IMG/VR virus record: IMGVR_UViG_3300034374_009468
Span: 1 to 59,960 of that record
Reading direction: 5' to 3' (one strand)
DNA length: 59,960 bases
From: a virus
The notes under the pieces are model-generated. The model ran no database searches and had not been told where the DNA came from. It saw only the letters and a program-made list of their open reading frames with translations. Each line of letters begins with the position of its first letter. Position 1 is the first letter of the stretch. Positions 4,181 to 58,449 of the stretch are shown piece after piece. Both the position numbers and the translations under genes were made by a program.

Positions 4181-4630
4181 ATGAAAGTAGAAGAAAGAAA
4201 ACAGAAATTGTATGAGTTAAAAGAATATCATAAAGATTTCTTTGAAAAAAACAATGGTTTTTATTTGCCTAAAATGGCATATAAACCAAGAGGTAAAAAT
4301 GAACTGCATATAGGATTTTTTCCAAGTGAATTGAAAAAAGCTATTGATATATTTGTAGAGTTTGTAGATAGAGATTATAATATTGAAGGAGAAAGAATAT
4401 TGTATAAATATGAACACAATCCATATTGGGAAGAAGAATATGAAAAATATGTATCCAGCTCAGGTTTTGAAACTTATATTGTTCCTGTAAGTGAACTAAT
4501 TGAAGTCAACAAGAAAATTGATGTTGTAGAAAATGTAATTTCTACTGCGTCTATAAATAAGAAAAGAACAGCACTCGATGTTCTTTTAAACATTGAAAAA
4601 TTATTAATTAATTTAAACAAAAAAATCTAA
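4181..4630 (+). CDS. hypothetical replication-operon protein
   Basis: A 149-residue soluble protein, aromatic and charge-rich ('NPYWEEEYEKYV'), with a helical C-terminus ('DVVENVISTASINKKRTALDVLLNIEKLL'). The start lies 3 bases after the helicase stop, and its final A is the first base of the next ATG (TAATG). No domain recognised. Position between helicase and the Sak4-like ATPase suggests a replication or recombination accessory role. Confidence 0.6.
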   Translation: MKVEERKQKLYELKEYHKDFFEKNNGFYLPKMAYKPRGKNELHIGFFPSELKKAIDIFVEFVDRDYNIEGERILYKYEHNPYWEEEYEKYVSSSGFETYIVPVSELIEVNKKIDVVENVISTASINKKRTALDVLLNIEKLLINLNKKI

Positions 4631-5310: not shown

Positions 5311-5333
5311 TTAACAATTAAAATTTAGAAATT

Positions 5334-29400: not shown

Positions 29401-32081
29401 CCTACTTGAAGAACAGTACCTGTTATATCTTGAGCTACAGTAAGTAAATCATCTAAATCTTGTTCTGAAAAGTTTCTATTACTATTACTTTTAATTATTT
29501 CTTTTACATAATTTGTAATAGCTTGATCTATTATTCCAGTTTCATTACCTACTCCTACAAGAGTATTTAACTCTGATTGCAATTTTAAAATTATACTTCT
29601 TTGAGTATCATTTAAATACTCAGATTTTTTTACTTCATATAAACCTCTAAAAGTTTCAGCAAATCTGTTAAAGTTTAAAACATAACCTATATAATTTTCA
29701 TTATTAAAATTAGATGGTTCTTCTATATATTCTTTAAAATCTTTTATTTGTTTTAAAGCATCTCTCAATAAGGTTGTATATAAAGCACTTCTTGCTCTTG
29801 GACCTTCATTTTCAGCTAAAATTATTGTAGAAATACTATTTACTATATATTCTTTGGTTTGTTTAGTAGATCTATTCATATAGATATTACTCTTAATATT
29901 ATCAATAACTTCTTGCTTTTTAAGCAAAGCTTCTTTATATCTTTGTAATATGTTATAAACAATCATGTGATCACCTGATTCATGAGGTTTTTCTTCCTCT
30001 AACATTTCAGTTTCTGTAAGCATATCTTCTACAGTTACTTCATCTTCAGGTACTTCTATATCTCCTATTTCAATTTCTAGATCTAAATCTTTTCTTGAAG
30101 AAAATATTTTATCAATAGTATTTCTATTTTGAGAAATGGGGTGTTTAATTATTTCATCTTGTTCAAAAGCTCCAGTAAAAACTTGATTCTTACCTTTTCC
30201 TAAAACTTCAACTTTTACATGCATTGTTTGAACTGCTTCTTCTGATGAATCAAATTTATAACCCATTAATTCAAGCATAGCTCTATACATATTTACTTGA
30301 AAATTATGTTGTTGTCTAGTAGATAAAGATTTAATACCTAAATTTATTAAACTAGAATCTTCTTTTAATTCCCATTCTCTTTCGGGTTTTCCTTCATTAA
30401 AAGTTGCTGGATTTTTACTGGTTTTTAAATCTATTATTCTAAGTTCTCCATTTGGTAAAATAATTAATATATCAACTGTACCTGCTATTCTAGCATCTCT
30501 ATTGTGAACTATAACTTGAGGTATAGCTACACTACCTATAGGTATAGCATCATTTATAAAATCAGATAAAAAATCATAAGCTTCTTCACCTTTATTAAAA
30601 TTATCTAACATAGGTAATTTACTTGCTATTTCATTATAAGGTATACCTGATAAAATAGCATTCATTAAACTATCAAAATAATTACCTATTGTTAAATTTA
30701 ATTTATATTCTTCTAATCTAGCTGAATCCATTTTACCTTTTATTATTGTAGATACAGGTGTATATTCAGTAGCATCTGAACCATTAATTGCGTGATTTAT
30801 ATTAATATAAGTGTGACTTTCTTCATCAAATACTATTAAGTCTTTATGTTCATTTTCTCCTTCTAAGTTTTTACTGGCAAATAAATCATTAAACTCTTCT
30901 TCAGATGTCTGAGCAAGTTTAAATAATTTATTAATAATAGCACGTTGTTTATCATTAGCTCTCTCTAAAGCAAAATTCACAACTCTTTTTTTATCTTCTG
31001 ATAAACTATATTGTATTTTTCTTGAAGCTGTAGCATTAGGATTGAACTGAACTCTTTTAGTATTTAATTTTTTAGCTAGATCAGATAATGTTGTATTATC
31101 TCTGATTGAAATAGGTTCTATATTCAAATTTAAACCTGTGACTGCTTTATATAACTTATTTATAATATCACTTACCCATATTAGAAATTCTCTCAATCTA
31201 TTTTTAAAATTATTAGATGTGTTTTTTTCATATTCTTTTTTAAAATGTTTTGTTAAAGCTTGAGTTACTAATTCTAACTTTCTATCTTCTTTATTAAAAC
31301 CTTCATCATCATTATATAAATCTTCTATTTCTTCATTTAAAAGAGGGAAATTTTTTTTACTTTCATTATACAAATTATTAAATAGAACTAAATTATTAGT
31401 TTGTAAACTATTAACAAATGGATGAAGAACTTCTTCTATAGCTGTTTCATTTGTCACCTTTTCATCTATAAGTATAACTTCTCCATTATAATAAAAAGAG
31501 TTTACTTTTTTAAAATCAACTTTTGATTTAATATTATTAGGTAAAGAGTTATAATATCTTTCTGCTTCTTTTTCTGTTAAGTACTTAATTTTTACATCTG
31601 GAAATAAATCTCTTAAATAACCAATTAAATTCAAAGTTCTATTGGAATTATTATTAGCTTCCATAGATTTAGAATCTATAGGAATTCTTTTTTTAGGATC
31701 AATAGATACTTCTTTATAGGTTTTCTTTTTTTCTATTTTTAAAACATCTGATGAAATACCATTAAAATTTAAATACCTTCTAGCTAATTCTAATTTTACT
31801 TCTCTATTTTTATCATCAGGTATGATGTATCTATTTCTAGCTTTAGTTAATAAACCTAAACTAGCAAGATTATTAAGGATAGTATTTTGAAAATTAGAAA
31901 TATTATTTTTTAGATTTTTTTTCTCTAGTGATAGAAAATCTTTCATATCACTTAAAGTAGGGAAATCATCACTTTCATTAGCTTCTTGCCATTTATTAAT
32001 ATAAATGTTAGTTGTAATTTCGCTACCTACATATTCAGCTAATACTTTATATTCTTTTAAATTTTTATTATGACATTTCAT
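26445..32081 (-). CDS. large virion/ejected protein with PD-(D/E)XK nuclease domain
   Basis: A 1,878-residue protein, second of the two giant virion genes. The start is ATG 32081, which overlaps the stop of the preceding giant gene as ATGA; an in-frame TTG at 32090 is disfavoured. Residues of about 440-640 hold a nuclease fold: 'YTPVSTIIKG' near the start, then 'AGTVDILIILPNGELRIIDL' ending in Asp551-Leu-Lys and 'HNFQVNMYRAMLELMGY'. The rest is helical, with an aromatic C-terminal part 'GKLIFQFHKWVIPAIKARYR'. Its counterpart in crAss-like phages is co-packaged with the RNA polymerase protein. A host-DNA nuclease delivered at entry is one idea; a structural role is another. Confidence 0.8.
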   Translation of the reverse strand: MKCHNKNLKEYKVLAEYVGSEITTNIYINKWQEANESDDFPTLSDMKDFLSLEKKNLKNNISNFQNTILNNLASLGLLTKARNRYIIPDDKNREVKLELARRYLNFNGISSDVLKIEKKKTYKEVSIDPKKRIPIDSKSMEANNNSNRTLNLIGYLRDLFPDVKIKYLTEKEAERYYNSLPNNIKSKVDFKKVNSFYYNGEVILIDEKVTNETAIEEVLHPFVNSLQTNNLVLFNNLYNESKKNFPLLNEEIEDLYNDDEGFNKEDRKLELVTQALTKHFKKEYEKNTSNNFKNRLREFLIWVSDIINKLYKAVTGLNLNIEPISIRDNTTLSDLAKKLNTKRVQFNPNATASRKIQYSLSEDKKRVVNFALERANDKQRAIINKLFKLAQTSEEEFNDLFASKNLEGENEHKDLIVFDEESHTYININHAINGSDATEYTPVSTIIKGKMDSARLEEYKLNLTIGNYFDSLMNAILSGIPYNEIASKLPMLDNFNKGEEAYDFLSDFINDAIPIGSVAIPQVIVHNRDARIAGTVDILIILPNGELRIIDLKTSKNPATFNEGKPEREWELKEDSSLINLGIKSLSTRQQHNFQVNMYRAMLELMGYKFDSSEEAVQTMHVKVEVLGKGKNQVFTGAFEQDEIIKHPISQNRNTIDKIFSSRKDLDLEIEIGDIEVPEDEVTVEDMLTETEMLEEEKPHESGDHMIVYNILQRYKEALLKKQEVIDNIKSNIYMNRSTKQTKEYIVNSISTIILAENEGPRARSALYTTLLRDALKQIKDFKEYIEEPSNFNNENYIGYVLNFNRFAETFRGLYEVKKSEYLNDTQRSIILKLQSELNTLVGVGNETGIIDQAITNYVKEIIKSNSNRNFSEQDLDDLLTVAQDITGTVLQVGETASSSDTLLALMDKIYKNKKQEFYDVLEEMNNKINLLADRLQKASPEKDVQKLFHFMLEFDKNGLPTGEIISKMGPLYKETLTKLRNELIDENGVWKQYRPVYDIKNASQADIEYNIRLAKAKEAYSNFWKAERKGAGNKPIDGDFHKYTQEFKDIRDKYEVYISNGKGGYWTKKSKGVSNAAYTAYKTKYFDSIEYTQPVRKNGLFTGQISSGVTIQVPKKKYIVTTSFTSKGESLLNERYKSIMENTDTELGRAQKEYYLAHVETMEKLLNALPPGVKSSMTGKIPLIRSKLYNNLKSKPNIVTRLWTKMTRSIDNLTTETNTQRLVSTDENGEIIDSLPIYYTGKIKDESELKAVIDEIDLLHEKRKNKSIDIISYKKKLKELNSKRLSIENSIGADELNLDLATGLKKFAGMAEHYRVMGTIEDTLNAMVKAIENRKYTQASGSKLVTYLKGDKKETYVKGSESNILRRAKKFMHMIYYDNDQLTKNFYDKVAEKIIDQTSLSYIAFNVFGNFNNYTLGRLNNSIEALGERFTSKKSYARAVLEYNKVFIPGLIQRTAYGESSDNLKDILTFNTLNFANNSAYNPNKPMNKYEAFADLFRMMDDKGDIREKTSGADSTYQSWWSKFKEFGYIFQDAGEYNVQTKMGISIVMDQVAINESTGETLSLYDAMDFDGSTQTLVLKEGFKIQKKDGTIVEFDDAFRYNLRNYIREVIKQAHGSYAYEDRVVMQSATWGKLIFQFHKWVIPAIKARYRKEYFDENLGWMEGRYISFFKFLAYVKQQIAEGNLQLFKYKETFLEEQKEAFLNNLGKSEVEAEQYANNKMANVYRTVAELMITLTTFMLKQIFQSFFSGDEDDSDLEKRFENILMYQSDRTYKELTIFMPFLPSAYVQVWQAADTPIASLKLLGEMGEALSQTVSTPFARVIKGKEGFYADSDYVYQRRPKKGELKLAKEWRDVVPILYTIQKWNNYLEERDFYIK

Positions 32082-35000
32082 ATATAACAATTTTTTAAAT
32101 TTTCAATAAACTCCTCTATAGTAACACTAGTATTATTAAATTCCTGAAATAAATCTTCTGCAGTCTTATTTAATTTTTTTATTTGTTCTGGTGTTAAATC
32201 ATTAAGGAATCCTTTAATTTTATTTTTAGCTTTTAAAGTTTTAATAAAAACATCAGATGGAGCTTCAACATCAATATCAATATCATCAAAATTAATATCA
32301 TCACCTTCTTCTGGAGTTTTTCCAGAAATAGTTTGTGCTTTTTGATCTATGATTTCTTGAGGTATTGAATCAATCATAGATTCTATATCATCAATATTAA
32401 AATCTGGTTCATTAGGATCTAAGTACTCTTTACCGTTTTTACTTTCTATAAAAGCTTTTATTTCTTTCCCTGATATTCTTTCACCAAACATAAAACCTCC
32501 TGCCCATTGAGAGAAAGCACCTTCTGGTTGGAACTCTTCATATTCAGCATAATTAGCAGTAATAAAATCTTCATTAACATCGTTTGCTGTTTTAGAAGTA
32601 CTATAACTCACAAGTCTAAAATGTCTATAACTCTCAGTAATAGAATCTCCAACTTTTAATACATAAGGTATTTCCATTTCAAACACTTCTCCTATAGTTT
32701 TATTACCATAAGTAACAAATTCTAAATTATTATTTCTTATATTAGACTTGATTAAACTTTTATTTATACGTTTATTTTTATCTTTTAATTTTTCACCTTT
32801 AAGTTTTAAACCTTTTCTTTCAGAACCATAACCTTTTATAGAACCAACTTCGGTATTTTTTTCAGGATATAAATCAATTATTAATTTAGAATTTGAAATA
32901 CTATCCCGTATATAAATATATTTAGAGCCTAGATTTGTATCTAAATCTATCTTGACTTGTTTTAATATATCTGACATAGCCTGTGCTATCTTAGGACTTT
33001 TCTCTTTGATTTTCTTATACTCAGGTATTAAATTATCTAAATAAACAATTTTTTTATAATTTTTAAATTCCTTCTTTGACTTACCACTAATAAAACTATA
33101 AAAAGATTCTTTGAACTGAGATAATTGGTCATCTGTAACCAATTTTCCATCTTTATTTTTATAAGGTATTCTTAAAGCATTTTTCATTATTCCAAACTTA
33201 GAAATTAAGTTTTTATCTGCATATATAAATAAAGTATCAGGATTTTCTTGTACGTCTTTTAAAGTAAACTCTCTTACTGAATTTATATCTGATTTTATAG
33301 TGACTAAACCTGCACGGAAATTTTTAAGTTTAAATCTTAATTTATTACTTTTTAAATAACCAATTATAAAATCTTGAAAAAGACTTTCTTCATCTGTACC
33401 AAAAGTATTTAACATGTTAGTTTCAGTAGGATTTAAAAAAGCAGTTTCAATACCGTCTATTTGCTCCAAATACCTTTCATATATAAAAGGTGTTACAGCA
33501 TCTAATAAAGAACCGTAGTTATAAGACATTCCGTCTTTTACCATTATATAATGTATCAATTCGATAACAGAATCTCTTGTATAAGGATTTGTATATAATT
33601 TTACTAAATCTGATTGAATCTTAATTTTTGCAGAATCATTTAATTTTACAAAAGTATTTGCCATAGCTACATTAATACCATAGTTATTGTTTTCATCTTG
33701 GGCTTCACTTGCTATTACAAAATATTTAAGGAAAAAATTATTAGGATCTCTTTCTCTTAAACTAGATACTAAATCAGTTACTTTCTTACCTTCTAACTGA
33801 GGATATAAAATACTATTAGATAAACTACCTATCATACTAGAACCTGAAAGTTCTAAATTTTGCATGTAAGCTTTAATAGTAATATAACTTAATAAATCTA
33901 ATCTGAACTTTTCTAATTCTTCATCTGATACTTGTCTAAGATCAATATTTCTAATAAACTTATTATACATATTCATAAAGACTTCTGTCCGTGTTAAAAA
34001 TACTCTAGGTAATAGTTTATCTTTTATTTCTACAAATATATTATGTAAATTTCCTTGCCAAGTATTTTTTAAAATAGGTCTTATGTTAATTACAACTTCT
34101 CCTTTTCTGATTCTTGAATCAAAATATTTTTTATATTCAGAGTTTGTTAAATTTAAACCTAATGCTTCAGCATCTTTTTCTTTTCTTAATACATCTGTGT
34201 ATCTTTTACCAGGACCTTTTGTATGATTTAAAACAGAACCTAAATGACCAGTATAGTTTTTAATTTGTAAAGCTGTATAAAATTGCTCTAGAACACTATA
34301 TGTAGCACTTATTAAATAAGGGTCCATTTCTTCTAACTTCTCACTATTAACTTCATTTGTGATTAAATATTCTAATAATTCATCATTTACAGAAATTAAA
34401 AGAGGAATTTCTTTTTTACCCTTAGCTTTATCAAATAATCCAGGTAAACTTCCAAGTTCAATTTCAGTTAATTTTTTAATACCTGGATCTGTAGGTGTCT
34501 CTTTGTTTATTGCTTTGAAATATAACTGCTGTATTAATGGGTTATTTATTAATAAAATTGATGTTTTTAAAGGAACACCTAAAGCAACCATATTTGCAAC
34601 AACAGCAAGAGCATCTTTATTTAACCCCAATTTTGCAGATAAACGCAATTTAGCATTATCTGTCATTGCAGTAATTAATGCAGATATTAAATATTGTTTT
34701 CTATAAGGTACTCCTTTACCATCATCTCCTGCATATTCACCATCAAAATCTTCATATAGTATCTCATCAAATACTAAATTTTTTGTTAGTAATTCACCAG
34801 ATTGCTCATCTCTAATAACAGGTAAAGAAATTTTATATTCTTTTAATAAACTTAAATATAAGTTTGGTAAAACAGCTGCTCCAATAGAATTAGCTCCTGC
34901 TTTATTGGCTTCAAAAGCTTTCATTTTATTCATTAAATTATCAATATCTACATCTTCTTCTGAGTTAAGATTTTCAAAATAAGGTATAGTTTTAGATAAT

Positions 35001-38000
35001 TCGTCTAATAGATCTGTTAAAGGTTTAGTATCTGCAGGTTCATGTTGAATAGCTACATCTCTACCTTTAGTATTTGTAATATGTTCATTACCAAGTAAAG
35101 CAAATTTATAATCTAATATTTTATTATTTATAGCTTCTGTATAAGGTTCTTCATCATATTTATTTTTATATGAAACATAATCTTCATATGTTAATGGCAG
35201 ACCTAATTGAATAATTGCTTTAGCAACATTTTCTGAAATATTTTTATCATCAATGTATTTTAAAACATTATTTGTTAAACCAGAAGGATTCTTTTTATTA
35301 AACTTATCTACAGCTGCTCCATATACAGAACCTTGTTTTTTAACATTCTTACTTACACTTTTTATGTAATGTTCATAACCTTCCTTATTATCATTAACAT
35401 TTCCGTATTCATAAAATTGCCCATTTTCATAGAAATAAGCTTTCATGTGCATGTACAATTTATCAATATCAAAATCGGCACCTGATATTTCTATTAATTC
35501 TCTAGCAACAACTACTGAAGAACCGTAATATCCTGGCATGAAGTCTACCCATTTAACATTCATAAATGAATGTTTATCTTGAGAAGGAATACGTACAGTA
35601 AACATTTTAGATAAAAAGTCAGGCATTTTCTGATTAGTTCTTGCAAACATTTTAGCCATATTGATTTCATGTGGAGCCATTATCATTTCAGAATATCTTT
35701 GACCTGTATATTTATATTTGTCTTTTTCTACTTTTACATATTCTTTCATATTGTCTCTTAATCTATCAATTATAATTACAGGTCCTTTTTTCACAGCTTC
35801 AGCTAAACCACTTAAGTTTTTATCATCTCCTGCAATAGGACCGTTGTCTATATTATATTCTATTGCATTAGCATCATACATTCTGTGAAATACATCTTCT
35901 CTAATAATTTCTTGTTCATCAGGCATACCATTTTTATCTACACTGTATACTTTTCTATAAACTCTTACACCCATATCAGATACTAATGCTGCAGAAACTC
36001 CAGGAATTTTAGAAGCCATAACACCTTTAGTAAAGAAACTTAAGAATAATTGCTCAAATTTTAATACTGTTTGTGGATTATTTAAGTTATATTTTTGTTG
36101 TCCGTTTTCATCTACAGAAAACATTTCAATAATGTTACTTGTAGCATTAGATGCTTCTAATCCAGCAGCAGCATACATTAAAAAACTATATAATTCAGGT
36201 AGTAAAGAATTAGCTTTTTTACTTTTATCTAGTAATTCATTAGCTTTTTCTAAGTCAAATCTAAATATTAAATTTCTCTTATTTGTATAGTTTAAACGAT
36301 CTCTGTTAGTTAAAGCTTCATTATAAACATTTCTTATCTGAGCAATTGTAAAAGTTTTACCGTTTATGATTACTTCTGTATCAGGATTTTGTTCTGAAGT
36401 TATTATTGTCCTAACTTGGTTAGGATCTGTTATTTCTATTTTATTAGATGGGTTTATGGTTTGCAATCTCATATATTCTGCATCCATATCCATTCTATTA
36501 TCTGTTGAGTATTCTCTTCCAGAAGTAGCATCTTCGAAGGTTTGAATATTCATTTTTAATTTTTTCAATGCTGAAGCTGGTGCAGCTAAAGCAAGAGTTC
36601 CTCTACCTTCTGCCCACTCTCTTTCTTCAAATTTTTCCATTGAAACTCTAAGATTGTGAAGAGCTATTTTATTAGGTTTAGGTTTCCATATTCCATCTTC
36701 TTCATAAGATGTATATTCTTTAGTTAAAAAGAATATTGATGTTTTTAAATAAATCTTACCGTCATCATAAACAAACTTTTTAGAGTTCATCATAGCTTGC
36801 ATTTTAGCATAGCTTTGACCCCCTTCTGCGGATTCTAATAATTCTTCATATGGTATTTCTTCACCGTTTTCAATTCTTTGTAATAATCTTAATTGTTTAG
36901 GTGTTGTTTTACCTAAACCAAACCAAAAATGTTTAAATGCTTTTATTGTCCCGTAAGTTTGACCATCCGCTATTTGAACATTAGATCCTTCACCATAACT
37001 TTTAGTATTTTCAGGATCTTGAAAACCAAACATTGATATGTGTTTAGTTTCATGCATTATACCAAATTCTTCTGCAATAGCAGCTGTAGCAGCTGTATCA
37101 CCAGCAGCATTAGAACCTTTAGCACGTTTTATTTCATCTGTACTATCTTTTAGAATTAAAGCTCTATCTCCTAATAATATTTGATTTAAAGCTGAAGTAT
37201 TTAACCAATCATTAAAAAATATTTGTTTGAGGTTATAAGTAAAGTCATCTGTTAAATTTAATAAGCTGTTAGATAAATCTACTTGACTTGTTTTTTTACC
37301 ATCTGCATTTTTTAAACCTTCTTTAATGTAAGAACCTAATAAAGTATCAGCAGAAATCTGAGACATTTCATTTAAGAATTTTTCAAATTCTTTTTCTAAT
37401 CTATTGATTAAGAATGCTTTAAATTCTTCCATTCCTCCTAATTGTTCAATAGCCTCTTCAAAACTTAAATCATTATTTTCTGCAATTATATTTTCAATTT
37501 CTGTAGCCCAATCTTTTAGCATTTTAGGATCTGAAGCTATTTCAGTTTCTTGAGTATCTTCTACATCTTGATCAATTCCTGCATAATCTTCAAAAGAAAC
37601 ATATTCTTCTGTTTGTGGTAAATTAAGTTTACCTGTGTCAAACCATTCTTTACTGAATATTACATTAGAAGGAATTGTACCTGCTTCGTTAAACATATCA
37701 ATTAATTCATCACCGCTGTAACCATTTAAAGACTTTTTACTTCCCACATGTCGGTAAGCAACTTTAAAAGTTTTATCTGGGTTAGCTCTAGCAGTCTCAT
37801 ACATTTGTTTAACATTTGCTGTTATTTGGGCTGGAGTTACACTTTTCTTTTTACCAGGCTCAGTAACTGTAGTTAATCCATAAGCATTACCAGAGTCAGA
37901 TAACTTATTATCCATTTTCTCTCCTTGTTTAACTCCGAATTGAGTACTAGCTACTAACGCTGCACCTCCTGTGCCCCTTGAAGGATTACCATTCACTCCA

Positions 38001-41000: not shown

Positions 41001-44000
41001 GCTGTAGTATATTTTAATACTTTAGATGCTGTTTTATTATCATAGATTAATATTCTTTGATCACCTCTTATTAAATTAATAAGTTGTTTTTCAGATGTTT
41101 TTAGATTAGATTCTTTAGTTATAACATTCTTTTTCTCTTTGACAGGAGTAAGGATGTATCTATTTTTACCAAATACTTGAGCTCGTTTTTTTCCTTTATT
41201 ATAATTTTCAATATCTCTTTGATCTCTAGTATTAGGATTTACATTCTTTTTAATTCTTTCAAATTCAGATATAATATTATTTATAAAACCTTGAAGAGCT
41301 TTTTCAGTTAATACAGGCATCCCTTCTTTATTATATTCTACAGTTTTTATTACTGGTAAATATGTTAAATCACCTGTATTAGAAGCTTCTAAGACACGTA
41401 TTAAAACAGGAGCTAATGCTACTTCTTCTTTTTCATTATTTTCATTTTCTACAATTACTGTATTGGATAATTTACCAGTGTACTTGTTAAATAATCCTGG
41501 ATAAGAATTTATAATAACATTTAAAAATTCTCTTGGTGTCAAATCACCATAAGTTTTACCAACACCTCCTGATTCCTCAATACCGTCTTCTGTTTGACTT
41601 ATTCTACCTTGTTTAAATCCAGATACTCTTGTTATATGTAAACCTTTGTTTCTTGCTAATTCATAAAAAGCTTCGTTATTCAAAAGCCAATTTCTAGTAA
41701 GGAACTCATCTTTTTTTAATTCATTTAATTTATCTTCATTATTTAATAGCAACATGGTTTTTAAATGGAAAGAAGATTTTTGATGTGCATATACTAAATC
41801 ACCATTAGGATTTTTAAATACAGATGCTCCAATTGTTTCATCAAATTCAGCATTAGCCATTGATATTTTTTTAAGTATTCTACCACTTCCTAAATCTCCT
41901 GTGGAAAAAATACTTATATCATTATCAATAGCAGTCTTCATATATTGAATATTAGTACTTGTTAATGATTCTACATTTGTATAAGCTTCTAATAATGTTG
42001 CTTGTTTTTGTGTTTTTATTTCTATATTTTGTAAAATCATATAAGCTATATATTGAGAGCTTAATATGATTCCTGTATATTTCATTAAATCTTCTCGCAA
42101 TTCTTTTGCTATTTCTGCTAATTCTATATCAGATATTGATTCTATGCTATTACCAGATATATAAGCTTCAAAATCTTCTAAAAATTCTTTAGCTTTATCT
42201 TTTAAAAGAACACCATCAACATCTTTAACCTTATCATTATATTTTTTATATATGTTAATATACGCTTGACCCCAAGTGTCTATTTGAGCATTGGCATCGT
42301 CTCTTTGAGAAGCTGAGTAAATATATATTTCGCCATCATTATTTCTATGTATAAATAAGTAATCTACTCTAAAGTTTTCTAACCCACTTAATAAAGCATT
42401 TAAAAAGAAAGGATCTTTTGTTTTACTTGACCAATCACCATTAGTAATATCTTCTTCTGCTATTCCTAATCTGTTAAAAATTCTATTTACTACAGCTCTA
42501 GTGTGAGGATTATGTTCCCCAAACAATAAAAGTTTATTAAGTATTTCTGTAGGATTTGTAGTATTAGCAGTAGCTTTTAAAATACCATTATAAGCATAAG
42601 CAAAATCAACAGGAACTATTAATCTTTCACCTTCTTTTAACTCTTCATGATTAAACATATCACTTTCTTCTACTGTAGTAGTCATTATAAACTTTCTAAG
42701 CATTGATGATATAGAGTTCCATCCTCCATAATTACTAGCATCTTTATCCCAATCATTAACTGTTCTTAAACCCTCATCATCTTCTTGTTCTTCATATACA
42801 TAAATAGAATCATCTATTTTTACATCTACTAAACTTAAATATGTAGTAACAGCTTTTTTTATTTCATCATCAAAACGTACAAAAGCTGCATAGAAATCAT
42901 TTAAAATAAGCTTTAATTCAAAACTTAATTCTTTATTAAACGGTTTAGTAAAATCATATAACTCTTTATAATCTTTAATTACCTCATCTAATATTTCATT
43001 CCTTGTTTTTTCTTCAAAATCATCATCTCTATAATTTGCTTTACTTATTCTAAATGCTTCCTCTCTTTGCAAGTAAGTTGCTGCTATACTTCTAATCATA
43101 GCATTTGCAGCATCTGTATCCAATGTTTTATATAAATTTCTTTTAGCATCTATTACTTCATAAGGTATCATTATAGCATTGGCTTCTACTGTAATACCTT
43201 GTTCAGCTGCTAATGTAAATCTATTAATTACTGGAGTTGAGGATTTAAATTTACCAGAATCTATATTTTCATATAATCTTCTTAATTCATTTTTAGTAAA
43301 TCTTGAGAAAAAGGCTTTAATCCACTCAATTAATCTTGCAAAAAATGATTTGTTTGCAGGATCAGTTTTAGTAGATTTTGGAGATTGTTTAAATAATTCA
43401 AATTGATCTGCTAAATATTCTTCGTAATAAAGTTTAACTAAATCAGATCTAGATAGATCTTGATATTCTGAAGTTAAATTTTTAAAATCATTTAAAGCTT
43501 TTTCAAAACTTATACCTTCTTTTCTTAGTTTAGCTCTTACTTCTTTTGCAGCAAGTCTTAAATATTTATTTTGTTGTTCGTCTGTTAATAAAAGTCTAAA
43601 TACAGCGTGAAATGCTTCATGATATCTAAAAGGTGTTTCAGCTCCTGTATATAAAGTACCTTTTACTCTCATACCACCAGCTATATCTGATAGAGCTAAA
43701 GCAAAAGCTCCTACTCTTACACCACCAGATTTCATATTATTACCTAATACAGCTAAATCTTTAATATCAATATAATCAGGTAAATTTTTAGCTGCCCAAT
43801 CTAAAAATACATTTATATTTTCAACATCTATTTCATCAAGAACTACACCTTTTAAAATCTTATTACCTGTTATTTGAGACATTAAAACATTAAGATCCCT
43901 TTTTAAATTATTTAATTCTTCATCATTATCTACTATACTTCTGTCTCCTTTTAAAACAGCTTGTTCAAATAATTCTTCTTGTTTTTTTCTAATAATAGAT

Positions 44001-47000
44001 TCTAGTTCTGATATTCTGTCAGATAGCGTATCCTTATCTAAATATTCATTTACAGTTATTCCTGATTCTTTAATGGTTGGAGTTTCTTGTATATCCTCAT
44101 CTTTTTTTAATTCTTCAGTTTTATATTTATTTTCTATTAATTTAATTTGATTGTAAAATTCATTTTTAATGTCATTAATATTATTAGTTTGATTTTCTGT
44201 TGCATTTTCATCAAAAATATTCTCTATTCTTTGAACATAAGATTTTAATATTTCTTTTTCTTCTCTATATTGTTCAGATATTAAATCTACTTCTTTTGAT
44301 AATTTATCAACATATTCTTTACTAAAACCTGGAACATCCTCAAACTTTTCATAAAAAAATTGCTCTATGATTTTTCGCTTATTATCATAAAATGCTAATT
44401 CTATATCTGTTAATATAGCTCCTTCATTTAGTATATTTATTATTTCATTATTTATATTAATTATCTTTTCAGCAGAATTTCCTAATAACTCATCTAAATC
44501 TTCAACTTCTTCTTCAGATATTTTTTCATCAATTTTAACTTCAGGTTTTTCTTTTTCTATTAAATCTCTTTTCTTTTTTTCAGCTTCTACAATTAAAGGA
44601 ATATCTTTTGTAGCCTGAATATCTACATCATTTTGCGAAATGGTTATTTGATATTCTTTTCTTACCTCTCTTGAATGATTTGTTTCTGTATTATTTAATA
44701 TTTCTTCAACAGTTGCTTCATTTGAAATATTCTTTCTAATATCATCAACAGTAATATTTACATTTATACCTAGCTCTTTTAAACGTTTATTGACGTTGTT
44801 AAAATGTTCTTGAAACATGTCAAAATAAACATTATATTTATCTTCTCCATCTTTTATTTTTTCTTGAGCTTCTATTATTTCATTAAAACCTATTCTTTCA
44901 GCACTATTTTGATTGTATTTATTTTTTAATTGCTTTTCGTATTTTTTTGTTTTGTTGTCATATTTAAGAAATTGTATTTCTATTCTTCCTCTAGGATCTA
45001 ATTCTAAACTAATTATTGTATTTGGTTTAGATATAATGTAAATTTTACTATCAATTTGTTCATCATTAAATTTTACATTATAAGCTAGATTTCTTAAATC
45101 TTGCTTCTCTGCAGTTTTTTTTGTATCTTCTATTAAATTTTCATTTACCGTTTTTTCACTTTGTTTTATTAAAGCATCAACAAAAGAAACAAATTCATCT
45201 CTATCTAATTTACTAGGTTTTAATTCTACAAGAGTATACTCACCACCTTGATTTTTTACAACTAGTACATAAGCTCCTTTATTTCTGGCAGTTTTATATA
45301 ATTTTTCTCCTAATTCATCTTTTATTTCTCTATGTCTAGATGCTGGATTAACACCATTTTCAAATTTTATAGTACTTAAGGTTTTATCTCTTCTAGTAAA
45401 TACTCTTTCACCTTTTTCATTGACAGTAAATTGTTTTCTGTTATCATATATTACTATATTCTTACCATCAATAGTATTATAATATAATGCATTAGGGCTT
45501 ATACTTTCTCTTTCATTTTCTTTAAATCTGTTTGTCATGTTAAAATAAAAACCCGCATTTTCTAATTCTTCAGGTGTAATTATTAAAGGTCCTTCTGTTT
45601 TAGTTTCTTTAGTTGTATCTTCTAAAGCAGCTAATTCAGCATCATATTTAGCATTAATTTGTTTTTTAAGTGAACCTTCTCCGTAAAAAGATTTTGCGTC
45701 ATATATAACATAAAAAGGAGCTGCATTAGTATTGCTTATTATGTGGTTGATAACTTTAACACCTTTTACTTCAGGATTAGACTGTTGAAAATCATTAAAT
45801 AAATGAAACACATAAGGAGCATCTTTTGCTTGATCTGTGCCGTTATATTCTTCTTTTGCAGTTTTAGCAGTATATTTTCCAGAAGGATTTTGAGGAGTGT
45901 TAATTTTATAACCTAAAGAAATTAAATAATCATATAATTCTGCTTCTGTCATATTAGCATCTATTACTACAAAATCAGAATCGTTAATTTCACCCTCTAT
46001 AGGCTGACCATATCTATTAACAAAAAAGGAGTTTGTAACAGATGCTACGTTTAACCCATTTCCAAATTGACTTATTTGTTGCCCCTTTTCTTTTTGGAAA
46101 GACTCAAAATTAAAATCTTCAGGTTTTACTTTAGTGTGATGAAAAACAGGTTTTACTTTATCTAACTCTTCTTGTCTTCTTTTTTCTATATCAGCTTTTT
46201 GATTTCTTAAACTTGACAAAGATTTTTTAGATTCTACTAATCTTATTAAATTAGCTTGTATAGCAAAATTCTCTTTAATCTTTTCTAAATCTGCATTGTC
46301 TATTTCTTCATTATATTTATAAAATATATTTCTTGCTGTAAATAAATCAATATTTCTAGGATCTATTACATTACCTTCATTATCATAAATTATAAAATTC
46401 TTATTTGGTAAATAAGCTATTATACCTTCGCTAGAATCTGAAACATTTAAACCTGCTTTTTTTAAGTCTCTATCAATTTGATTTCTCAATTCTAGGTCAG
46501 ATATTCGTATACCAATACTATACTTATCGGAAACTCTGCTTAATTGTGAATTAGGCTCTTTATCTGTAAAGGTAAATTCTCTTTCTGTAACAGTTCCTGA
46601 TTTAGGATTATCTGAAACAACAAGTTCTAATCCTTTTCTTTGTTCAGGTGTTAGATTTGAAAATATATAATCTAATCTTTGAATAGCACTAGCTCTATCT
46701 TCACCTTCATTTTCATATGGAATGTATCTTATTGGATCATTTATTCGTATCCTAGATACCTTATCTGATTTAATTGTAGGAGTTAATTTATCAATTGAGT
46801 AATTTTTTTTAAACTCTTCTGGAGAATTAATTGTTATAATTGTACCATCTTCTGAGACAATTTCCAGAGTATTAGTCACTTTAATTTTTTCTGGTGTTGA
46901 TAATACTTGAAACTTTTCTTCTCCTGAAAAAATATACGCTCCTTGAAATAGGGTGACTCCGCCATATTGAAAATCAACAGGTAAATCATTACTGTGATAT

Positions 47001-50000: not shown

Positions 50001-50827
50001 AAGGTATTACCTATAGATTTACCAACTGCTCTTACAACTTTTGTCGCATTAAGACCTGTTCTTGCAGCAGCTGCAGGTGCAGCAGTAAAACCTGTAGCTG
50101 CAGTAATTGCTGCAAGTGCTAATTCTTCAACAGCTACAGATAATATAATACCATAAGTATATCCAAAATTTAAAAACAAATTGCTTGCAAATCCTGTAAT
50201 CCCTCCACGACTTGACATACCTATCCCCATAGCTTTTTCAAATTCATCTGATGTTTTTACATCAGGCATAGTATAAGGATCGTTATCAAACATATCACCA
50301 AAAGATCTATAGTTACCTCTAATAGCACTACCTGCTAATTTATAAAACTGGGTAAGCATTCTTACAGTATCAGAAAAAACTGTAGAGTTATCATTATAAT
50401 ATTCTTCATTATTAGCATAAGGGTGAAATCCTAATTTTGAAAAATTTCTATGGCTGTAAAATCTATCAAACTGAGTCTTTTTTGCTGAAAATACAAGAGG
50501 GTCTGCTATAGAAACTTGATCTGATTTTGGAATAGGGGCACTAAATATGCGGTCAAAATTATTTTTATACGGATCATCGCTTAGATTTGTATCATTATTT
50601 TCACTTGGATATACTGATTTTATATCATCTGTAAATGGAACTGTATATTGTTCTATAATTGGTTGATAATGATCTAACAACTTTACATACTCTGGATCTA
50701 AACCTGGTGTAAAGTCAGGTATATCTGGAGAATCGTACCAAGCTTGTGGCGGATTAAAATCTATTTGTTCTGCACTAGGTAATGCATTATTTATATTTTC
50801 AAATTGAGGGTTTCTTTGATTTTCCAT
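32078..50827 (-). CDS. giant polyvalent virion protein with crAss-type RNA polymerase
   Basis: A 6,249-residue uninterrupted ORF, near 700 kDa. Order by motif: N-terminal Ala/Gly-rich hydrophobic stretch (about 220-270); long helical regions; ART-like domain beginning 'VFHHTKVKPEDF' near 1560; zincin HEAFH at 2403-2407 with later 'YYEEYLADQFELF'; nucleotidyltransferase-like 'LHDLDGVI' near 3735; second zincin HEYAH at 3951-3955; SLOG-like 'YAGIGSRSTD' from 4073; macro-like 'VFVFGSNPIG' from about 4265; then the polymerase, with DFDID at 5118-5122, the metal-binding loop of crAss double-psi barrel RNA polymerases. This is the protein known to be packaged and to transcribe early genes. Downstream, ATGA coupling to the 1,878-residue protein. 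Confidence 0.9.
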   Translation of the reverse strand: MENQRNPQFENINNALPSAEQIDFNPPQAWYDSPDIPDFTPGLDPEYVKLLDHYQPIIEQYTVPFTDDIKSVYPSENNDTNLSDDPYKNNFDRIFSAPIPKSDQVSIADPLVFSAKKTQFDRFYSHRNFSKLGFHPYANNEEYYNDNSTVFSDTVRMLTQFYKLAGSAIRGNYRSFGDMFDNDPYTMPDVKTSDEFEKAMGIGMSSRGGITGFASNLFLNFGYTYGIILSVAVEELALAAITAATGFTAAPAAAARTGLNATKVVRAVGKSIGNTFVLGRMAKATRQLSQTLNKTDNARTFWQATKSGEWGVLGTLFLPETMAAVKKLQTAKTAGKSLSGIAKMSTMFGGFYREVRAINYAMSESKLESGFVLQQQIANGIAIEEQKKLQGLEPNLALVGENANKAAFATTMMNFGLIYMSNKLVLDTAFKGFNKTLTRNLNNSISGTAGRAIRQSNIVGPDGKLLRDIYSDAGKGVKGRINKLKAAGAKGIGYATINSSLRYFAANLAEGVQELGQEAISHGTKYYFSKLQENPLGGGADLYKASINEAIGSQASGQGIETFLSGFLMGGLAKGPQKLIFEVLPDLKNRIFDKEAYKEYQERREAEVKKIVEERNKNYNEFIDDPVAYLDKHINNFLIQNEVNSEMNEASYDGDMFKFIDAKDFAKFHHIYGLMESGSVDLFRTELQDFLNLTDEELNEAFPTFKEEIKQGKLRERANDLINLIDKAEKAYNENKDALVNPYDPNKYDKNTEEYKNELTKYASFEHIRYLQMFTQDSFNRALERADKIYNELASDPILKKIQANDLTVLLDENSIKSEINLLKIEIENLDDSEEGKKLKQEKQTKIEKLKKVSEVLNLKDNLKQDGSFDKRKVKRILEPLKEYIQFLADTRGDFVDVNRIKEVLKKITDHRALSERAKANNRALQYLAVPENFDRVLERQTAIYKSLFEKNKENVEARIKKYIGTIEKNNLLNGLADLGVYPDANEVEGFLFFNDTRILKTFYHKDGTVTKDSGPVYKKIQNLIDVYNGISEEATQEEANQEEETDDAAKPPTRNKKVTQKEEGDDEILDYDFDIQLDKLSDTYHPVLKETLYRVYKESMNIASKAEQNTQTLSEWQKTDLALNIIDTYKFLKTKWKETLSKNKTDKSVIQDNFIKDIGLKDWLSFDTTKEDPDILNKNKENNTNILLYLDTPEVSYEEADVLKVLIKHKSDNYIVRILKTFVNGGYITNYKIITKTGLELSDQLLSDSTIFNKNGAIFSSLEDAKKAVEKLENKYHSNDLPVDFQYGGVTLFQGAYIFSGEEKFQVLSTPEKIKVTNTLEIVSEDGTIITINSPEEFKKNYSIDKLTPTIKSDKVSRIRINDPIRYIPYENEGEDRASAIQRLDYIFSNLTPEQRKGLELVVSDNPKSGTVTEREFTFTDKEPNSQLSRVSDKYSIGIRISDLELRNQIDRDLKKAGLNVSDSSEGIIAYLPNKNFIIYDNEGNVIDPRNIDLFTARNIFYKYNEEIDNADLEKIKENFAIQANLIRLVESKKSLSSLRNQKADIEKRRQEELDKVKPVFHHTKVKPEDFNFESFQKEKGQQISQFGNGLNVASVTNSFFVNRYGQPIEGEINDSDFVVIDANMTEAELYDYLISLGYKINTPQNPSGKYTAKTAKEEYNGTDQAKDAPYVFHLFNDFQQSNPEVKGVKVINHIISNTNAAPFYVIYDAKSFYGEGSLKKQINAKYDAELAALEDTTKETKTEGPLIITPEELENAGFYFNMTNRFKENERESISPNALYYNTIDGKNIVIYDNRKQFTVNEKGERVFTRRDKTLSTIKFENGVNPASRHREIKDELGEKLYKTARNKGAYVLVVKNQGGEYTLVELKPSKLDRDEFVSFVDALIKQSEKTVNENLIEDTKKTAEKQDLRNLAYNVKFNDEQIDSKIYIISKPNTIISLELDPRGRIEIQFLKYDNKTKKYEKQLKNKYNQNSAERIGFNEIIEAQEKIKDGEDKYNVYFDMFQEHFNNVNKRLKELGINVNITVDDIRKNISNEATVEEILNNTETNHSREVRKEYQITISQNDVDIQATKDIPLIVEAEKKKRDLIEKEKPEVKIDEKISEEEVEDLDELLGNSAEKIININNEIINILNEGAILTDIELAFYDNKRKIIEQFFYEKFEDVPGFSKEYVDKLSKEVDLISEQYREEKEILKSYVQRIENIFDENATENQTNNINDIKNEFYNQIKLIENKYKTEELKKDEDIQETPTIKESGITVNEYLDKDTLSDRISELESIIRKKQEELFEQAVLKGDRSIVDNDEELNNLKRDLNVLMSQITGNKILKGVVLDEIDVENINVFLDWAAKNLPDYIDIKDLAVLGNNMKSGGVRVGAFALALSDIAGGMRVKGTLYTGAETPFRYHEAFHAVFRLLLTDEQQNKYLRLAAKEVRAKLRKEGISFEKALNDFKNLTSEYQDLSRSDLVKLYYEEYLADQFELFKQSPKSTKTDPANKSFFARLIEWIKAFFSRFTKNELRRLYENIDSGKFKSSTPVINRFTLAAEQGITVEANAIMIPYEVIDAKRNLYKTLDTDAANAMIRSIAATYLQREEAFRISKANYRDDDFEEKTRNEILDEVIKDYKELYDFTKPFNKELSFELKLILNDFYAAFVRFDDEIKKAVTTYLSLVDVKIDDSIYVYEEQEDDEGLRTVNDWDKDASNYGGWNSISSMLRKFIMTTTVEESDMFNHEELKEGERLIVPVDFAYAYNGILKATANTTNPTEILNKLLLFGEHNPHTRAVVNRIFNRLGIAEEDITNGDWSSKTKDPFFLNALLSGLENFRVDYLFIHRNNDGEIYIYSASQRDDANAQIDTWGQAYINIYKKYNDKVKDVDGVLLKDKAKEFLEDFEAYISGNSIESISDIELAEIAKELREDLMKYTGIILSSQYIAYMILQNIEIKTQKQATLLEAYTNVESLTSTNIQYMKTAIDNDISIFSTGDLGSGRILKKISMANAEFDETIGASVFKNPNGDLVYAHQKSSFHLKTMLLLNNEDKLNELKKDEFLTRNWLLNNEAFYELARNKGLHITRVSGFKQGRISQTEDGIEESGGVGKTYGDLTPREFLNVIINSYPGLFNKYTGKLSNTVIVENENNEKEEVALAPVLIRVLEASNTGDLTYLPVIKTVEYNKEGMPVLTEKALQGFINNIISEFERIKKNVNPNTRDQRDIENYNKGKKRAQVFGKNRYILTPVKEKKNVITKESNLKTSEKQLINLIRGDQRILIYDNKTASKVLKYTTAKEERDVIISSADKKSKTKPLETKIVGLGRVAIVKPSTFLYYVNLFGNSVVTEENKEKLTGSTVYEIKFGNITRYTHSKAIADFLQGNPMYVYMTKDEYAKQEQDIVTDLQESNITDENYETYQKIIEILKKVYPNIELNILEKPEFFKAGKNVYNQLFSDTRRSKFDRQLADKLITFIEGLNIKVVENDNDLLDSLKFKTGTPLAAFDTLQKYLSLSSKITNKELTLQTANIIYTFLGKKSVIGVELWKSINNWEGYKKIYDKYHTYNDDELISENIEYSKEGFNPFAHKQAIIHFIAEMLEFGHENNYIGEKRINPDLTKDYFEAKGFKNKYAENPLVRAFNKLLNWINQNILGVSAVNEYNSEELKNLVLDIVDDVYKQDYTKFLRSYKKDKNGNIVNEKGEVFEQKFYQETLNKDPFAKAILEKLFENPFINYKLSGSQVIRRYGTLYRSVNEDLHDLDGVISLETFRQEPTAVPFYTWLSTRGMELSAKRDNKTFMKEVTPLLERMTWYQNVKQMFPDFVLDVVFIGKDHKNAESLTITGHVTHPTEIDPETGLNKQYVLDFFLRTNEGNYPEVFDNYYKDWKQIFEAKINMGRAKDIADLIYFEPFLEDKYKFTNKGFRYFSFAEDNAPQTFNQKNEGRIIGQAIIEDVDSMKGKILIDLVNQRIDTIPHEYAHFFIAKFRNSAIVKEAIKKWGSEEALVQSIGEQAVKQEGEAWGWWKSFVEWIKKQFSKLSDLDKQELTNILTDAFLTGTDISEYEKLFADSKYKPEPPKKNQPIFNSLPGRSSTPTMTYAGIGSRSTDPKVKDTMTKVAKYLEELGYTLNTGVTFKGKEEGADAAFSRGAKKKNLFSPENQGNREKEQDIAKEIHPSPKNLKPGALKLMARNTNQVFGDNLDTPVDFVIFWAKETDNPLRPKGGTGQAVEMARRKGIPTINMDSPNWRKELTSILKDNKLRKAQKQNSNQTYPIKEGVTEQYYEGNITPEPNTVFVFGSNPIGVNGNPSRGTGGAALVASTQFGVKQGEKMDNKLSDSGNAYGLTTVTEPGKKKSVTPAQITANVKQMYETARANPDKTFKVAYRHVGSKKSLNGYSGDELIDMFNEAGTIPSNVIFSKEWFDTGKLNLPQTEEYVSFEDYAGIDQDVEDTQETEIASDPKMLKDWATEIENIIAENNDLSFEEAIEQLGGMEEFKAFLINRLEKEFEKFLNEMSQISADTLLGSYIKEGLKNADGKKTSQVDLSNSLLNLTDDFTYNLKQIFFNDWLNTSALNQILLGDRALILKDSTDEIKRAKGSNAAGDTAATAAIAEEFGIMHETKHISMFGFQDPENTKSYGEGSNVQIADGQTYGTIKAFKHFWFGLGKTTPKQLRLLQRIENGEEIPYEELLESAEGGQSYAKMQAMMNSKKFVYDDGKIYLKTSIFFLTKEYTSYEEDGIWKPKPNKIALHNLRVSMEKFEEREWAEGRGTLALAAPASALKKLKMNIQTFEDATSGREYSTDNRMDMDAEYMRLQTINPSNKIEITDPNQVRTIITSEQNPDTEVIINGKTFTIAQIRNVYNEALTNRDRLNYTNKRNLIFRFDLEKANELLDKSKKANSLLPELYSFLMYAAAGLEASNATSNIIEMFSVDENGQQKYNLNNPQTVLKFEQLFLSFFTKGVMASKIPGVSAALVSDMGVRVYRKVYSVDKNGMPDEQEIIREDVFHRMYDANAIEYNIDNGPIAGDDKNLSGLAEAVKKGPVIIIDRLRDNMKEYVKVEKDKYKYTGQRYSEMIMAPHEINMAKMFARTNQKMPDFLSKMFTVRIPSQDKHSFMNVKWVDFMPGYYGSSVVVARELIEISGADFDIDKLYMHMKAYFYENGQFYEYGNVNDNKEGYEHYIKSVSKNVKKQGSVYGAAVDKFNKKNPSGLTNNVLKYIDDKNISENVAKAIIQLGLPLTYEDYVSYKNKYDEEPYTEAINNKILDYKFALLGNEHITNTKGRDVAIQHEPADTKPLTDLLDELSKTIPYFENLNSEEDVDIDNLMNKMKAFEANKAGANSIGAAVLPNLYLSLLKEYKISLPVIRDEQSGELLTKNLVFDEILYEDFDGEYAGDDGKGVPYRKQYLISALITAMTDNAKLRLSAKLGLNKDALAVVANMVALGVPLKTSILLINNPLIQQLYFKAINKETPTDPGIKKLTEIELGSLPGLFDKAKGKKEIPLLISVNDELLEYLITNEVNSEKLEEMDPYLISATYSVLEQFYTALQIKNYTGHLGSVLNHTKGPGKRYTDVLRKEKDAEALGLNLTNSEYKKYFDSRIRKGEVVINIRPILKNTWQGNLHNIFVEIKDKLLPRVFLTRTEVFMNMYNKFIRNIDLRQVSDEELEKFRLDLLSYITIKAYMQNLELSGSSMIGSLSNSILYPQLEGKKVTDLVSSLRERDPNNFFLKYFVIASEAQDENNNYGINVAMANTFVKLNDSAKIKIQSDLVKLYTNPYTRDSVIELIHYIMVKDGMSYNYGSLLDAVTPFIYERYLEQIDGIETAFLNPTETNMLNTFGTDEESLFQDFIIGYLKSNKLRFKLKNFRAGLVTIKSDINSVREFTLKDVQENPDTLFIYADKNLISKFGIMKNALRIPYKNKDGKLVTDDQLSQFKESFYSFISGKSKKEFKNYKKIVYLDNLIPEYKKIKEKSPKIAQAMSDILKQVKIDLDTNLGSKYIYIRDSISNSKLIIDLYPEKNTEVGSIKGYGSERKGLKLKGEKLKDKNKRINKSLIKSNIRNNNLEFVTYGNKTIGEVFEMEIPYVLKVGDSITESYRHFRLVSYSTSKTANDVNEDFITANYAEYEEFQPEGAFSQWAGGFMFGERISGKEIKAFIESKNGKEYLDPNEPDFNIDDIESMIDSIPQEIIDQKAQTISGKTPEEGDDINFDDIDIDVEAPSDVFIKTLKAKNKIKGFLNDLTPEQIKKLNKTAEDLFQEFNNTSVTIEEFIENLKNCYI

Positions 50828-53800: not shown

Positions 53801-54017
53801 CAGATAAACCTTGAGTGAACTGCTCTCGCATTTCTTGAGTGTCTTTCCTAGATAAAGGAGCATAAACAATCTTACTATATAGATTATTTAATTGCTTATA
53901 ATTTGTATTATATCTAGTAGTCTTTGTATCTAAAACTGCGGATAAAAACTTATAGTCAGGAGTAAAAGGTTTAAACTCTGGCATATAAGATTTAGATCCA
54001 GGAATATACGTAGCCAT
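50832..54017 (-). CDS. large virion cargo protein
   Basis: A 1,061-residue protein just upstream of the RNA polymerase giant (4 bases apart). It begins 'PGSKSYMPEFKPFTPDYKFL' and is mainly helical, with Gln/Lys/Glu-rich coiled-coil stretches between about 230 and 470 ('INQKKEKVEEEVKEYTLSQQ'). The C-terminal third is beta-rich. In crAss-like phages a helical protein of this size at this position is packaged with the RNA polymerase as capsid cargo; I assign it by position and composition. Confidence 0.65.
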   Translation of the reverse strand: MATYIPGSKSYMPEFKPFTPDYKFLSAVLDTKTTRYNTNYKQLNNLYSKIVYAPLSRKDTQEMREQFTQGLSDKLEKISGMDLSLVQNVDAAKSVFKPFFETDIIVKDMVMTKVYQQEKSHANRLLNDPDQKRRDMYWDTGIKAMDYKMKDFIESDPDKALTAQLPRYVPDADLYQMSLELLKESGIEVEKDFITPGGQWVVRQKNGNLVTQQALELVQRSLMDDPRVQQAYHTKSYVEQRDFAEEGIQSGKFQSKEAAEQAWAQQQISQYTALINQKKEKVEEEVKEYTLSQQGWEEFREKYGIVPGSDHEKEMRRIHEARLAKIEEMNTVNQAQREANRQVNTQSTADLLNKAYNLSMQYNMKNDMIAAAITYGKQNESYKIIMENPEFKRNREFEYAKNLDDYTTLNDIKLAREKNELDKELEKYKKDLDLAYAPQPLLQPAKPSYGAPGTISIIDKDVLSYNQQQIDEKYTRDVLPAGKNFILTALSNEKIKQAFLKSSAYKDLVKEKGITGIGSSNNKNEKSFYNAISDMDEWTLYGYAYVIDSIIGDFTSKTNRKGEPNNLYDPDFAISSDFTNIDRLSKAYENQNKQYYEGIDRLAEAYGNGIVNRIKINGENEFTSSANRTTLNSFFKLNGIEITYNSLREGLRVVADENGNKRGKLKFLKRDGSVVSKQKFIDQYLELAEAGVLNTYIRPNFSAGLEGTIDHTGNKIHNYRLSSKQSSGRIGNFRRVSATEDASFLYDQLYTALVQSQTELPASDQGDQGTGEIFPIFDLNAFYKGTQARPQNEEGTGFLNPSYNIPVNPRSLNQTARSTISTLWNQLQITPQANMTVQPGILGTGDEDEFTKVSDEKAFNILRNWLVDIESQQLSGTGKTPSDTEPNGEIIYNPVYGGAEQLDQTKAGYVIRMNKDWLKKQLPTGTSESEINKYEYITFAFDQMNDINPRKSGEFNYSKVMTDIIYGNDNTYTFTLQNAGSLQVKQDLANPTLFHSKVNYQIYDPETGNYIIQEYVGSKDFKGYDIRTTIDPWVEQLEQEIYNIRNANIVKEKDNSNAVKK

Positions 54018-54029
54018 ATTTTTTTATTT

Positions 54030-56612: not shown

Positions 56613-56614
56613 AA

Positions 56615-58399: not shown

Positions 58400-58403
58400 A
58401 ATA

Positions 58404-58424
58404 TAATATACAAAATAAATATTT
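58404..58424 (-). promoter_or_regulatory. candidate late promoter element, second copy
   Basis: - strand AAATATTTATTTTGTATATTA (58424-58404) differs from the element at 21256-21237 only by one extra T. It ends 4 bases before the ATG at 58399. If it is a promoter the leader is nearly absent; it may instead be a leader or operator sequence. Confidence 0.45.
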
Positions 58425-58449
58425 AAAATACTAACTTACAGTCATAAAA

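What the first reader, a model, noticed from the sequence alone, without database searches (positions are those of the whole stretch)
32078..50827. 6,249-residue polyvalent protein fuses an RNA polymerase with several effector-type domains
One ORF combines the DFDID polymerase (5118-5122), two HExxH zincins (2403, 3951), an ART-like domain (about 1560), a nucleotidyltransferase-like motif (about 3735), SLOG-like and macro-like domains (4071-4400) and a hydrophobic N-terminus. The known crAss RNA polymerases are large, but this domain mix in one chain makes it a delivery system for many activities at entry.
Basis: partly seen in the sequence, partly recalled or inferred. Interest (0 to 1): 0.85.

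Follow-up and report, generated by a model that had tools for sequence, protein, structure and literature searches.

The report
Giant phage RNA polymerase with cargo insert
A bacteria-infecting virus of the crAss-like group makes one enormous 6,249-residue protein whose RNA polymerase core is shared with its relatives, but it carries an extra, apparently swappable block with a second protease-like domain and two domains of kinds linked to blocking bacterial immune signals.

Summary
The ORF is real: 6,249 aa, standard code, but on the minus strand (50827 to 32078). Residues about 4450-5840 are a crAss-type virion RNA polymerase; a profile built without phi14:2 finds the solved phi14:2 enzyme 6vr4 at E=1e-17, and DFDID is invariant in 80/80 relatives. 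Zincin 1 (HEAFH2403) is conserved (75/75) and belongs to the ordinary giant chain of this clade. The novelty is an insert of about 1,040 aa, residues 3398-4440: zincin 2 (HEYAH3951, motifs invariant in seven aligned sequences), a SLOG/DprA-like domain (phrog_768, 160 bits) and an A1S_2505-family 'macro-like' domain (over the NCBIfam cut-off). The closest relative lacks the insert cleanly. All nine viral-contig relatives of the A1S_2505 domain lie on crAss-type RNA polymerase chains, usually after the catalytic domain, so modules move around within these proteins. Not supported: the ART-like domain (about 1560) failed every test; the nucleotidyltransferase at 3735 rests on a motif alone; Pfam Macro does not match; both AlphaFold models were poor. 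Giant crAss RNA polymerases (to ~6,000 aa) and polyvalent RNAP-protease-ART fusions (N4-like phages) are published. Verdict: new variant of a known kind; delivery at entry is inferred, not shown.

The parts
32078..50827 (-). Giant ORF, 6,249 aa, ATG start, standard code
   Evidence: longest of 49 RNAP open frames compared (relatives 4,285-5,478 aa where not truncated)
50060..50191 (-). Hydrophobic segment, residues 213-256
   Evidence: Hydropathy; similar segments in close relatives, so not distinctive
45488..46207 (-). Residues 1541-1780, claimed ART-like; about 200 aa longer here than in the closest relative; identity unproven
   Evidence: No Pfam/NCBIfam hit, no PF18760 hit in the window genome, hhalign to a relative's ART no better than random segments, AlphaFold pLDDT 46 (85)
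43208..43840 (-). Zincin 1, residues 2330-2540 (HEAFH 2403-2407, EE 2469-2470)
   Evidence: H, E, H and both E invariant in 75/75 relatives; weak match to the zincin Pro-Pro endopeptidase 6fpc, E=0.01 (96); profile matches in cr112_1, cr55_1 and cr50_1 (88)
41138..43210 (-). Conserved block 2540-3230, unknown function, in about 75 relatives
   Evidence: no convincing PDB match
37508..40636 (-). Lineage-specific insert, residues about 3398-4440
   Evidence: Absent from the giants of the relatives except the A1S_2505 end in a few; closest relative G001 joins the two sides with no counterpart
39128..39790 (-). Residues 3680-3900 with GS...HDLD motif, claimed nucleotidyltransferase; unproven
   Evidence: Motif only; no family, tblastn or structure support
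38633..39160 (-). Zincin 2, residues 3890-4065 (HEYAH 3951)
   Evidence: 54% identity to a domain in another phage's RNAP chain; DT.PHEY.H and S.E.LV invariant in 7 aligned sequences
38108..38620 (-). SLOG/DprA-like domain, residues 4070-4240
   Evidence: phrog_768, 159.8 bits, E=1.1e-46 (56); not found in 33 related records
37580..38095 (-). A1S_2505-family 'macro-like' domain, residues 4245-4416
   Evidence: NF049995 56.9 bits against cut-off 45; phrog_2072; nine viral-contig relatives lie on crAss RNAP chains
33308..37480 (-). RNA polymerase region, residues 4450-5840
   Evidence: 6vr4 at E=9.9e-18 (95); hhalign 99% over 759 columns of phi14:2 gp66 (118)
35462..35476 (-). Catalytic DFDID, residues 5118-5122
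   Evidence: Invariant in 80/80 relatives and aligned with phi14:2 DFDID
26445..32078 (-). Downstream 1,877-aa protein, homologue of phi14:2 gp65, with PD-(D/E)XK exonuclease-like region
   Evidence: 44% identical over most of its length to G001's 2,225-aa protein
50832..59892 (-). Upstream genes in the same direction (1,061, 860, 594 and at least 480 aa), in the place of the cargo and tail genes of phi14:2
   Evidence: Order as in phi14:2 (34); 1,061- and 860-aa proteins match neighbouring genes of relative G001 (73); no PHROG match for the four (22)

Best explanation
This is the catalytic RNA polymerase chain of a crAss-like phage. In this clade the polymerase core is fused in one polypeptide with a large N-terminal zincin-bearing region that in other crAss phages is, at least in part, a separate cargo protein. 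In this phage the chain has also acquired, immediately before the polymerase core, an insert of about 1,040 aa with a second zincin, a SLOG/DprA-like and an A1S_2505-like domain. Shown by sequence: the polymerase homology, the zincin motifs, the insert and its clean absence in relatives, and relatives of its zincin and A1S_2505 domains in other crAss transcription-block proteins at other positions. Inferred: the chain is packed in the virion, threaded partly unfolded through the tail and refolded in the cell; the polymerase starts early transcription; one or both zincins cut the chain or host proteins; SLOG and A1S_2505 bind or destroy nucleotide signals of host immunity.
For: Polymerase. Conserved giant architecture: 44, 107. 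Zincin 1: 45, 88, 96. Insert and empty site: 44, 73, 74. Zincin 2: 46, 52, 60, 62, 71, 73, 75. SLOG: 11, 56. A1S_2505 domain recurrent on RNAP chains: 15, 37, 51, 55, 59, 61, 93, 102. Synteny with phi14:2 virion genes: 34. Virion packaging and ejection of homologues: PMC10172136, PMC10136315. Proposed roles of zincins: PMC5512222. Proposed roles of SLOG and Macro domains against ADP-ribose signals: PMC9503650.
Against: No expression, proteomic or biochemical evidence. AlphaFold models of 1536-1772 and 3441-4070 are of low confidence. The A1S_2505 domain does not match Pfam Macro, so an ADP-ribose role is a guess. The window is a 60-kb fragment without read data. The N-terminal 2,000 residues have almost no detectable match to reference crAss cargo proteins.
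Confidence: 0.75

Rival explanations
1. Polyprotein: the 6,249-aa chain is only a precursor. One or both zincins cut it during assembly or after entry into separate polymerase, SLOG/A1S_2505 and N-terminal chains, giving the separate-subunit state of Steigviridae such as phi14:2.
For: Conserved zincin in 75/75 relatives; the corresponding regions are separate genes in cr112_1 and phi14:2; the polyvalent-protein literature proposes autoprocessing for N4-like RNAPs.
Against: No cleavage site is recognisable here; many relatives keep 4,300-5,500-aa chains and no cleavage data were found.
Confidence: 0.35
2. The insert does not act on the host: SLOG/DprA-like, A1S_2505 and zincin 2 are accessory parts of the polymerase or of ejection (DNA binding, folding, threading).
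For: The A1S_2505 domain's nearest relatives are RNAP chains of crAss phages; the SLOG family is annotated DprA-like DNA recombination-mediator.
Against: The modules are absent from most relatives and change position, so they are dispensable for polymerase and ejection functions.
Confidence: 0.25
3. Assembly artefact: two phage genomes were joined inside this ORF.
For: The SLOG/A1S_2505 part is GC-richer (32-35% against 26-28% for flanks); the insert is absent from the closest relatives.
Against: The frame is open through both junctions; the A1S_2505 domain lies just before the polymerase also in L032 (44) and at the N-terminus of the cr112_1 RNAP; other domains of the insert occur in crAss RNAP chains.
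Confidence: 0.05

Closest known systems
Cellulophaga phage phi14:2 gp66 virion RNA polymerase (PDB 6vr4)
   Same: Homologous polymerase region, same catalytic motif and context, same gene order next to gp65- and gp67-like genes
   Different: phi14:2 gp66 is 2,180 aa in a separate gene; no zincin 1 counterpart detected in the part of gp67 compared and none of the insert domains found
Giant RNAP proteins of Suoliviridae (cr55_1, 4,551 aa; cr50_1, 4,774 aa) and p-crAssphage gp44/gp45
   Same: Zincin-bearing region and polymerase in one chain (cr55_1, cr50_1); cr50_1 also carries the A1S_2505 domain (37); p-crAss gp45 is annotated 'RNAP associated protein fused to zincin protease'
   Different: A1S_2505 is C-terminal in cr50_1; no SLOG and no zincin 2 of this type detected in them; shorter
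Relative G001 (IMGVR_UViG_3300049846_000430), 5,223-aa giant
   Same: Closest found, about 34-51% identity along the whole backbone, same neighbours
   Different: Lacks the insert; carries a Pfam ART-PolyVal domain in the next protein instead
Polyvalent proteins, N4-like virion RNAP with MPTase and sometimes ART (Iyer et al. 2017, PMC5512222)
   Same: RNA polymerase plus zincin metallopeptidase plus other enzymatic domains in one injected chain
   Different: Their polymerase is T7-like single-subunit; here it is the double-psi-barrel crAss type

Membership tests
crAss-like virion RNA polymerase | DxDxD catalytic motif in homologous context | tested here: met
   DFDID 80/80 relatives; aligned with phi14:2 (40)
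crAss-like virion RNA polymerase | Sequence homology to the solved phi14:2 enzyme | tested here: met
   6vr4 E=9.9e-18 (95); hhalign probability 99% (118)
crAss-like virion RNA polymerase | Packaged in the virion and active after ejection | not testable with these tools
   Known for homologues only
Crassvirales | MCP, TerL, portal and other order-level markers | not tested
   Not identified; the window is a 60-kb fragment; placement rests on transcription-block homology and synteny
Polyvalent protein (Iyer et al. 2017) | Two or more unrelated enzymatic domains in one chain of a mobile element | tested here: met
   RNAP, two zincins, SLOG
Zincin metallopeptidase | HExxH plus downstream glutamate ligand | tested here: met
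   Zincin 1 (45); zincin 2 (71)
Zincin metallopeptidase | Fold, or match to a curated family such as PF18818 | tested here: inconclusive
   PF18818 not hit in the window genome; weak PDB match 6fpc; low-confidence model
ADP-ribosyltransferase (ART-PolyVal) | Match to PF18760 or to ARTs of relatives | tested here: not met
Macro domain (PF01661) | Match to the Pfam Macro model | tested here: not met
   instead NF049995 A1S_2505 is met
SLOG/DprA-like | Match to a curated or built family | tested here: met
   phrog_768 159.8 bits; no Pfam match
Pol-beta nucleotidyltransferase | GS...DxD motif plus fold or family match | tested here: inconclusive
   Motif present, no family match, poor model

The most novel reading that the evidence does not exclude
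The phage physically couples its injected RNA polymerase to an immune-signal blocker (SLOG plus A1S_2505 domain) with its own release protease, so that the first protein into the cell both starts transcription and disarms NAD/ADP-ribose-based defence; crAss-like phages exchange such modules as cassettes inside the polymerase chain.
Probability: 0.25. Interest if true: 0.8.

Novelty: new variant of a known kind. Interest (0 to 1): 0.5.

Why it matters
It shows that the giant polymerase chain of crAss-like phages accepts whole enzyme modules between its conserved blocks, and that the same modules recur at different places in related phages. The empty site in relative G001 makes it possible to ask directly what the module adds: remove it and test entry, early transcription and sensitivity to nucleotide-signalling defences. 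It also gives the poorly understood A1S_2505 domain a recurrent partner, the virion RNA polymerase.

Tried and rejected
ART at ~1560: Pfam/NCBIfam, PF18760 over the window genome and relatives, tblastn, viral-contig scan, AlphaFold and hhalign against relatives' ARTs with 30 random control segments: no support. Nucleotidyltransferase at 3735: motif only; no homologue, poor model and meaningless fold search. Pfam Macro: no hit at E<=10. HETKH4592 as a third zincin: not conserved. Apparent repeat at the insert junctions (overlapping BLAST ends against G001): chance overlap. Homology of block 2560-3220 to phi14:2 gp66 N-terminus or to cr55_1: none found. Zincin 1 in the searched part of phi14:2 gp67: none. 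Stops between ORFs in L106/L107 as true gene splits: mostly TAG in the same frame, probably recoded.

Full report
OBSERVATION. The stated interval holds one ORF of 6,249 codons without an internal stop, on the minus strand; residue i starts at window 50827-3(i-1). HExxH is expected 0.05 times and DFDID 0.007 times by composition. A third HExxH (4592) exists but is not conserved.

THE POLYMERASE. tblastn with residues 4853-5352 finds RNAP proteins of crAss-like phages, at modest identity; the alignment with eight crAss chains places DFDID on phi14:2 DFDID. A profile search returned 80 related loci from viral contigs, with DFDID invariant in all 80. A profile of the window and 20 of them, without phi14:2, finds the solved phi14:2 RNA polymerase 6vr4 at E=9.9e-18, and hhalign aligns it with gp66 over 759 columns, probability 99%.

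THE BACKBONE. In relatives one chain covers window residues about 100-1530, 1770-2080, 2265-3230 and 4450-5840. Untruncated relatives have open frames of 4,285-5,478 aa; the window's is the longest of the 49 compared. A crAss fragment read with TAG as glutamine has 5,337 aa, and a review already cites crAss RNAPs up to ~6,000 aa (PMC10136315), so length alone is not new. HEAFH2403 and Glu2469/2470 are invariant in 75/75 relatives; the best PDB profile match is the zincin Pro-Pro endopeptidase 6fpc, weak (E=0.01) but aligned over HExxH and the distal Glu. The same region matches near the C-terminus of a separate cr112_1 protein and inside the giants of cr55_1 and cr50_1. Zincin-RNAP association is annotated in p-crAssphage.

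THE INSERT. Residues about 3398-4440 have no counterpart in the closest relative G001, whose 5,223-aa chain otherwise aligns throughout, and blastp coverage there falls to zero across the 80 loci except for the A1S_2505 end. The insert contains: (a) zincin 2, HEYAH3951, 54% identical to a domain in a 5,323-aa RNAP chain of another phage, with relatives in the protein after the RNAP, in other large phage proteins and in contigs binned to bacterial genomes; the HEY.H and S.E.LV motifs are invariant in the seven-row alignment; (b) a SLOG/DprA-like domain, phrog_768 at 160 bits, not found in 33 related records; (c) a domain of the NCBIfam family A1S_2505, over its cut-off. All nine viral-contig relatives of (c) lie on crAss RNAP chains, mostly downstream of the catalytic motif; in cr112_1 it is at the N-terminus of the RNAP protein, in cr50_1 and Kolpuevirus 'frurule' after the catalytic motif, in cr116_1 before it. 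G001 instead has a Pfam ART-PolyVal domain inside an extra stretch of the next protein. Modules are thus gained, lost and moved within this gene block.

WHAT FAILED. The ART at ~1560 and nucleotidyltransferase at 3735 gained no support from families, homologue searches or structure prediction. The orphan regions had few or no homologues, so poor AlphaFold confidence does not exclude those folds. Pfam Macro does not match the A1S_2505 domain, although its glycine-rich motif is reminiscent of macro domains; that is recall, not a test.

MECHANISM. Homologous proteins are virion cargo: phi14:2 gp65-67 and crAss001 gp47, gp49, gp50 by mass spectrometry, with a model of partial unfolding during ejection (PMC10172136). 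Polyvalent-protein work proposes that zincins process such chains or act on host proteins (PMC5512222), and that phage SLOG and Macro domains counter ADP-ribose signals and are usually standalone (PMC9503650). The best reading is an ejected RNAP chain with an added, possibly counter-defence, module. Packaging, processing and the immune role are inferred.

NOVELTY. Polymerase, fused zincin and polyvalent principle are known. New, as far as the tools show, are the combined zincin-SLOG-A1S_2505 insert inside a crAss RNAP chain, its empty site in a relative, and the recurrent association of A1S_2505 with crAss RNAP chains. A library search for 'crAss-like' with 'polyvalent protein' gave one paper, on an N4-like phage; most subscription papers are not in that library.

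Noticed in passing
L116 4615-11289 (relative G001): The protein after the giant has an extra stretch (residues about 333-688) with a Pfam ART-PolyVal domain over the cut-off, where the window's 1,877-aa protein runs through without it (318/320).
   Followed up: partly
L095, L106, L107: crAss-like fragments whose transcription-block chains are interrupted by in-frame TAG codons; read as glutamine, L095 gives a 5,337-aa RNAP chain and a separate next protein with a zincin 2 homologue.
   Followed up: partly
window residues 3460-3690 (about 39758-40450, minus strand): By eye looks like a degenerate zincin that has lost HExxH; not tested.
   Followed up: no
L118 3-15800: At least 5,266-aa chain with a zincin 2 homologue and weak crAss similarity on a contig binned to a Spirochaetales MAG; probably a phage contig.
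   Followed up: no
window 26445-32078: Neighbouring 1,877-aa protein carries a PD-(D/E)XK exonuclease-like region, in line with the nuclease reported in crAss transcription-block proteins.
   Followed up: partly
window 37508-38632: The SLOG and A1S_2505 parts of the insert have 32-35% GC against 26-28% for the flanking blocks.
   Followed up: no
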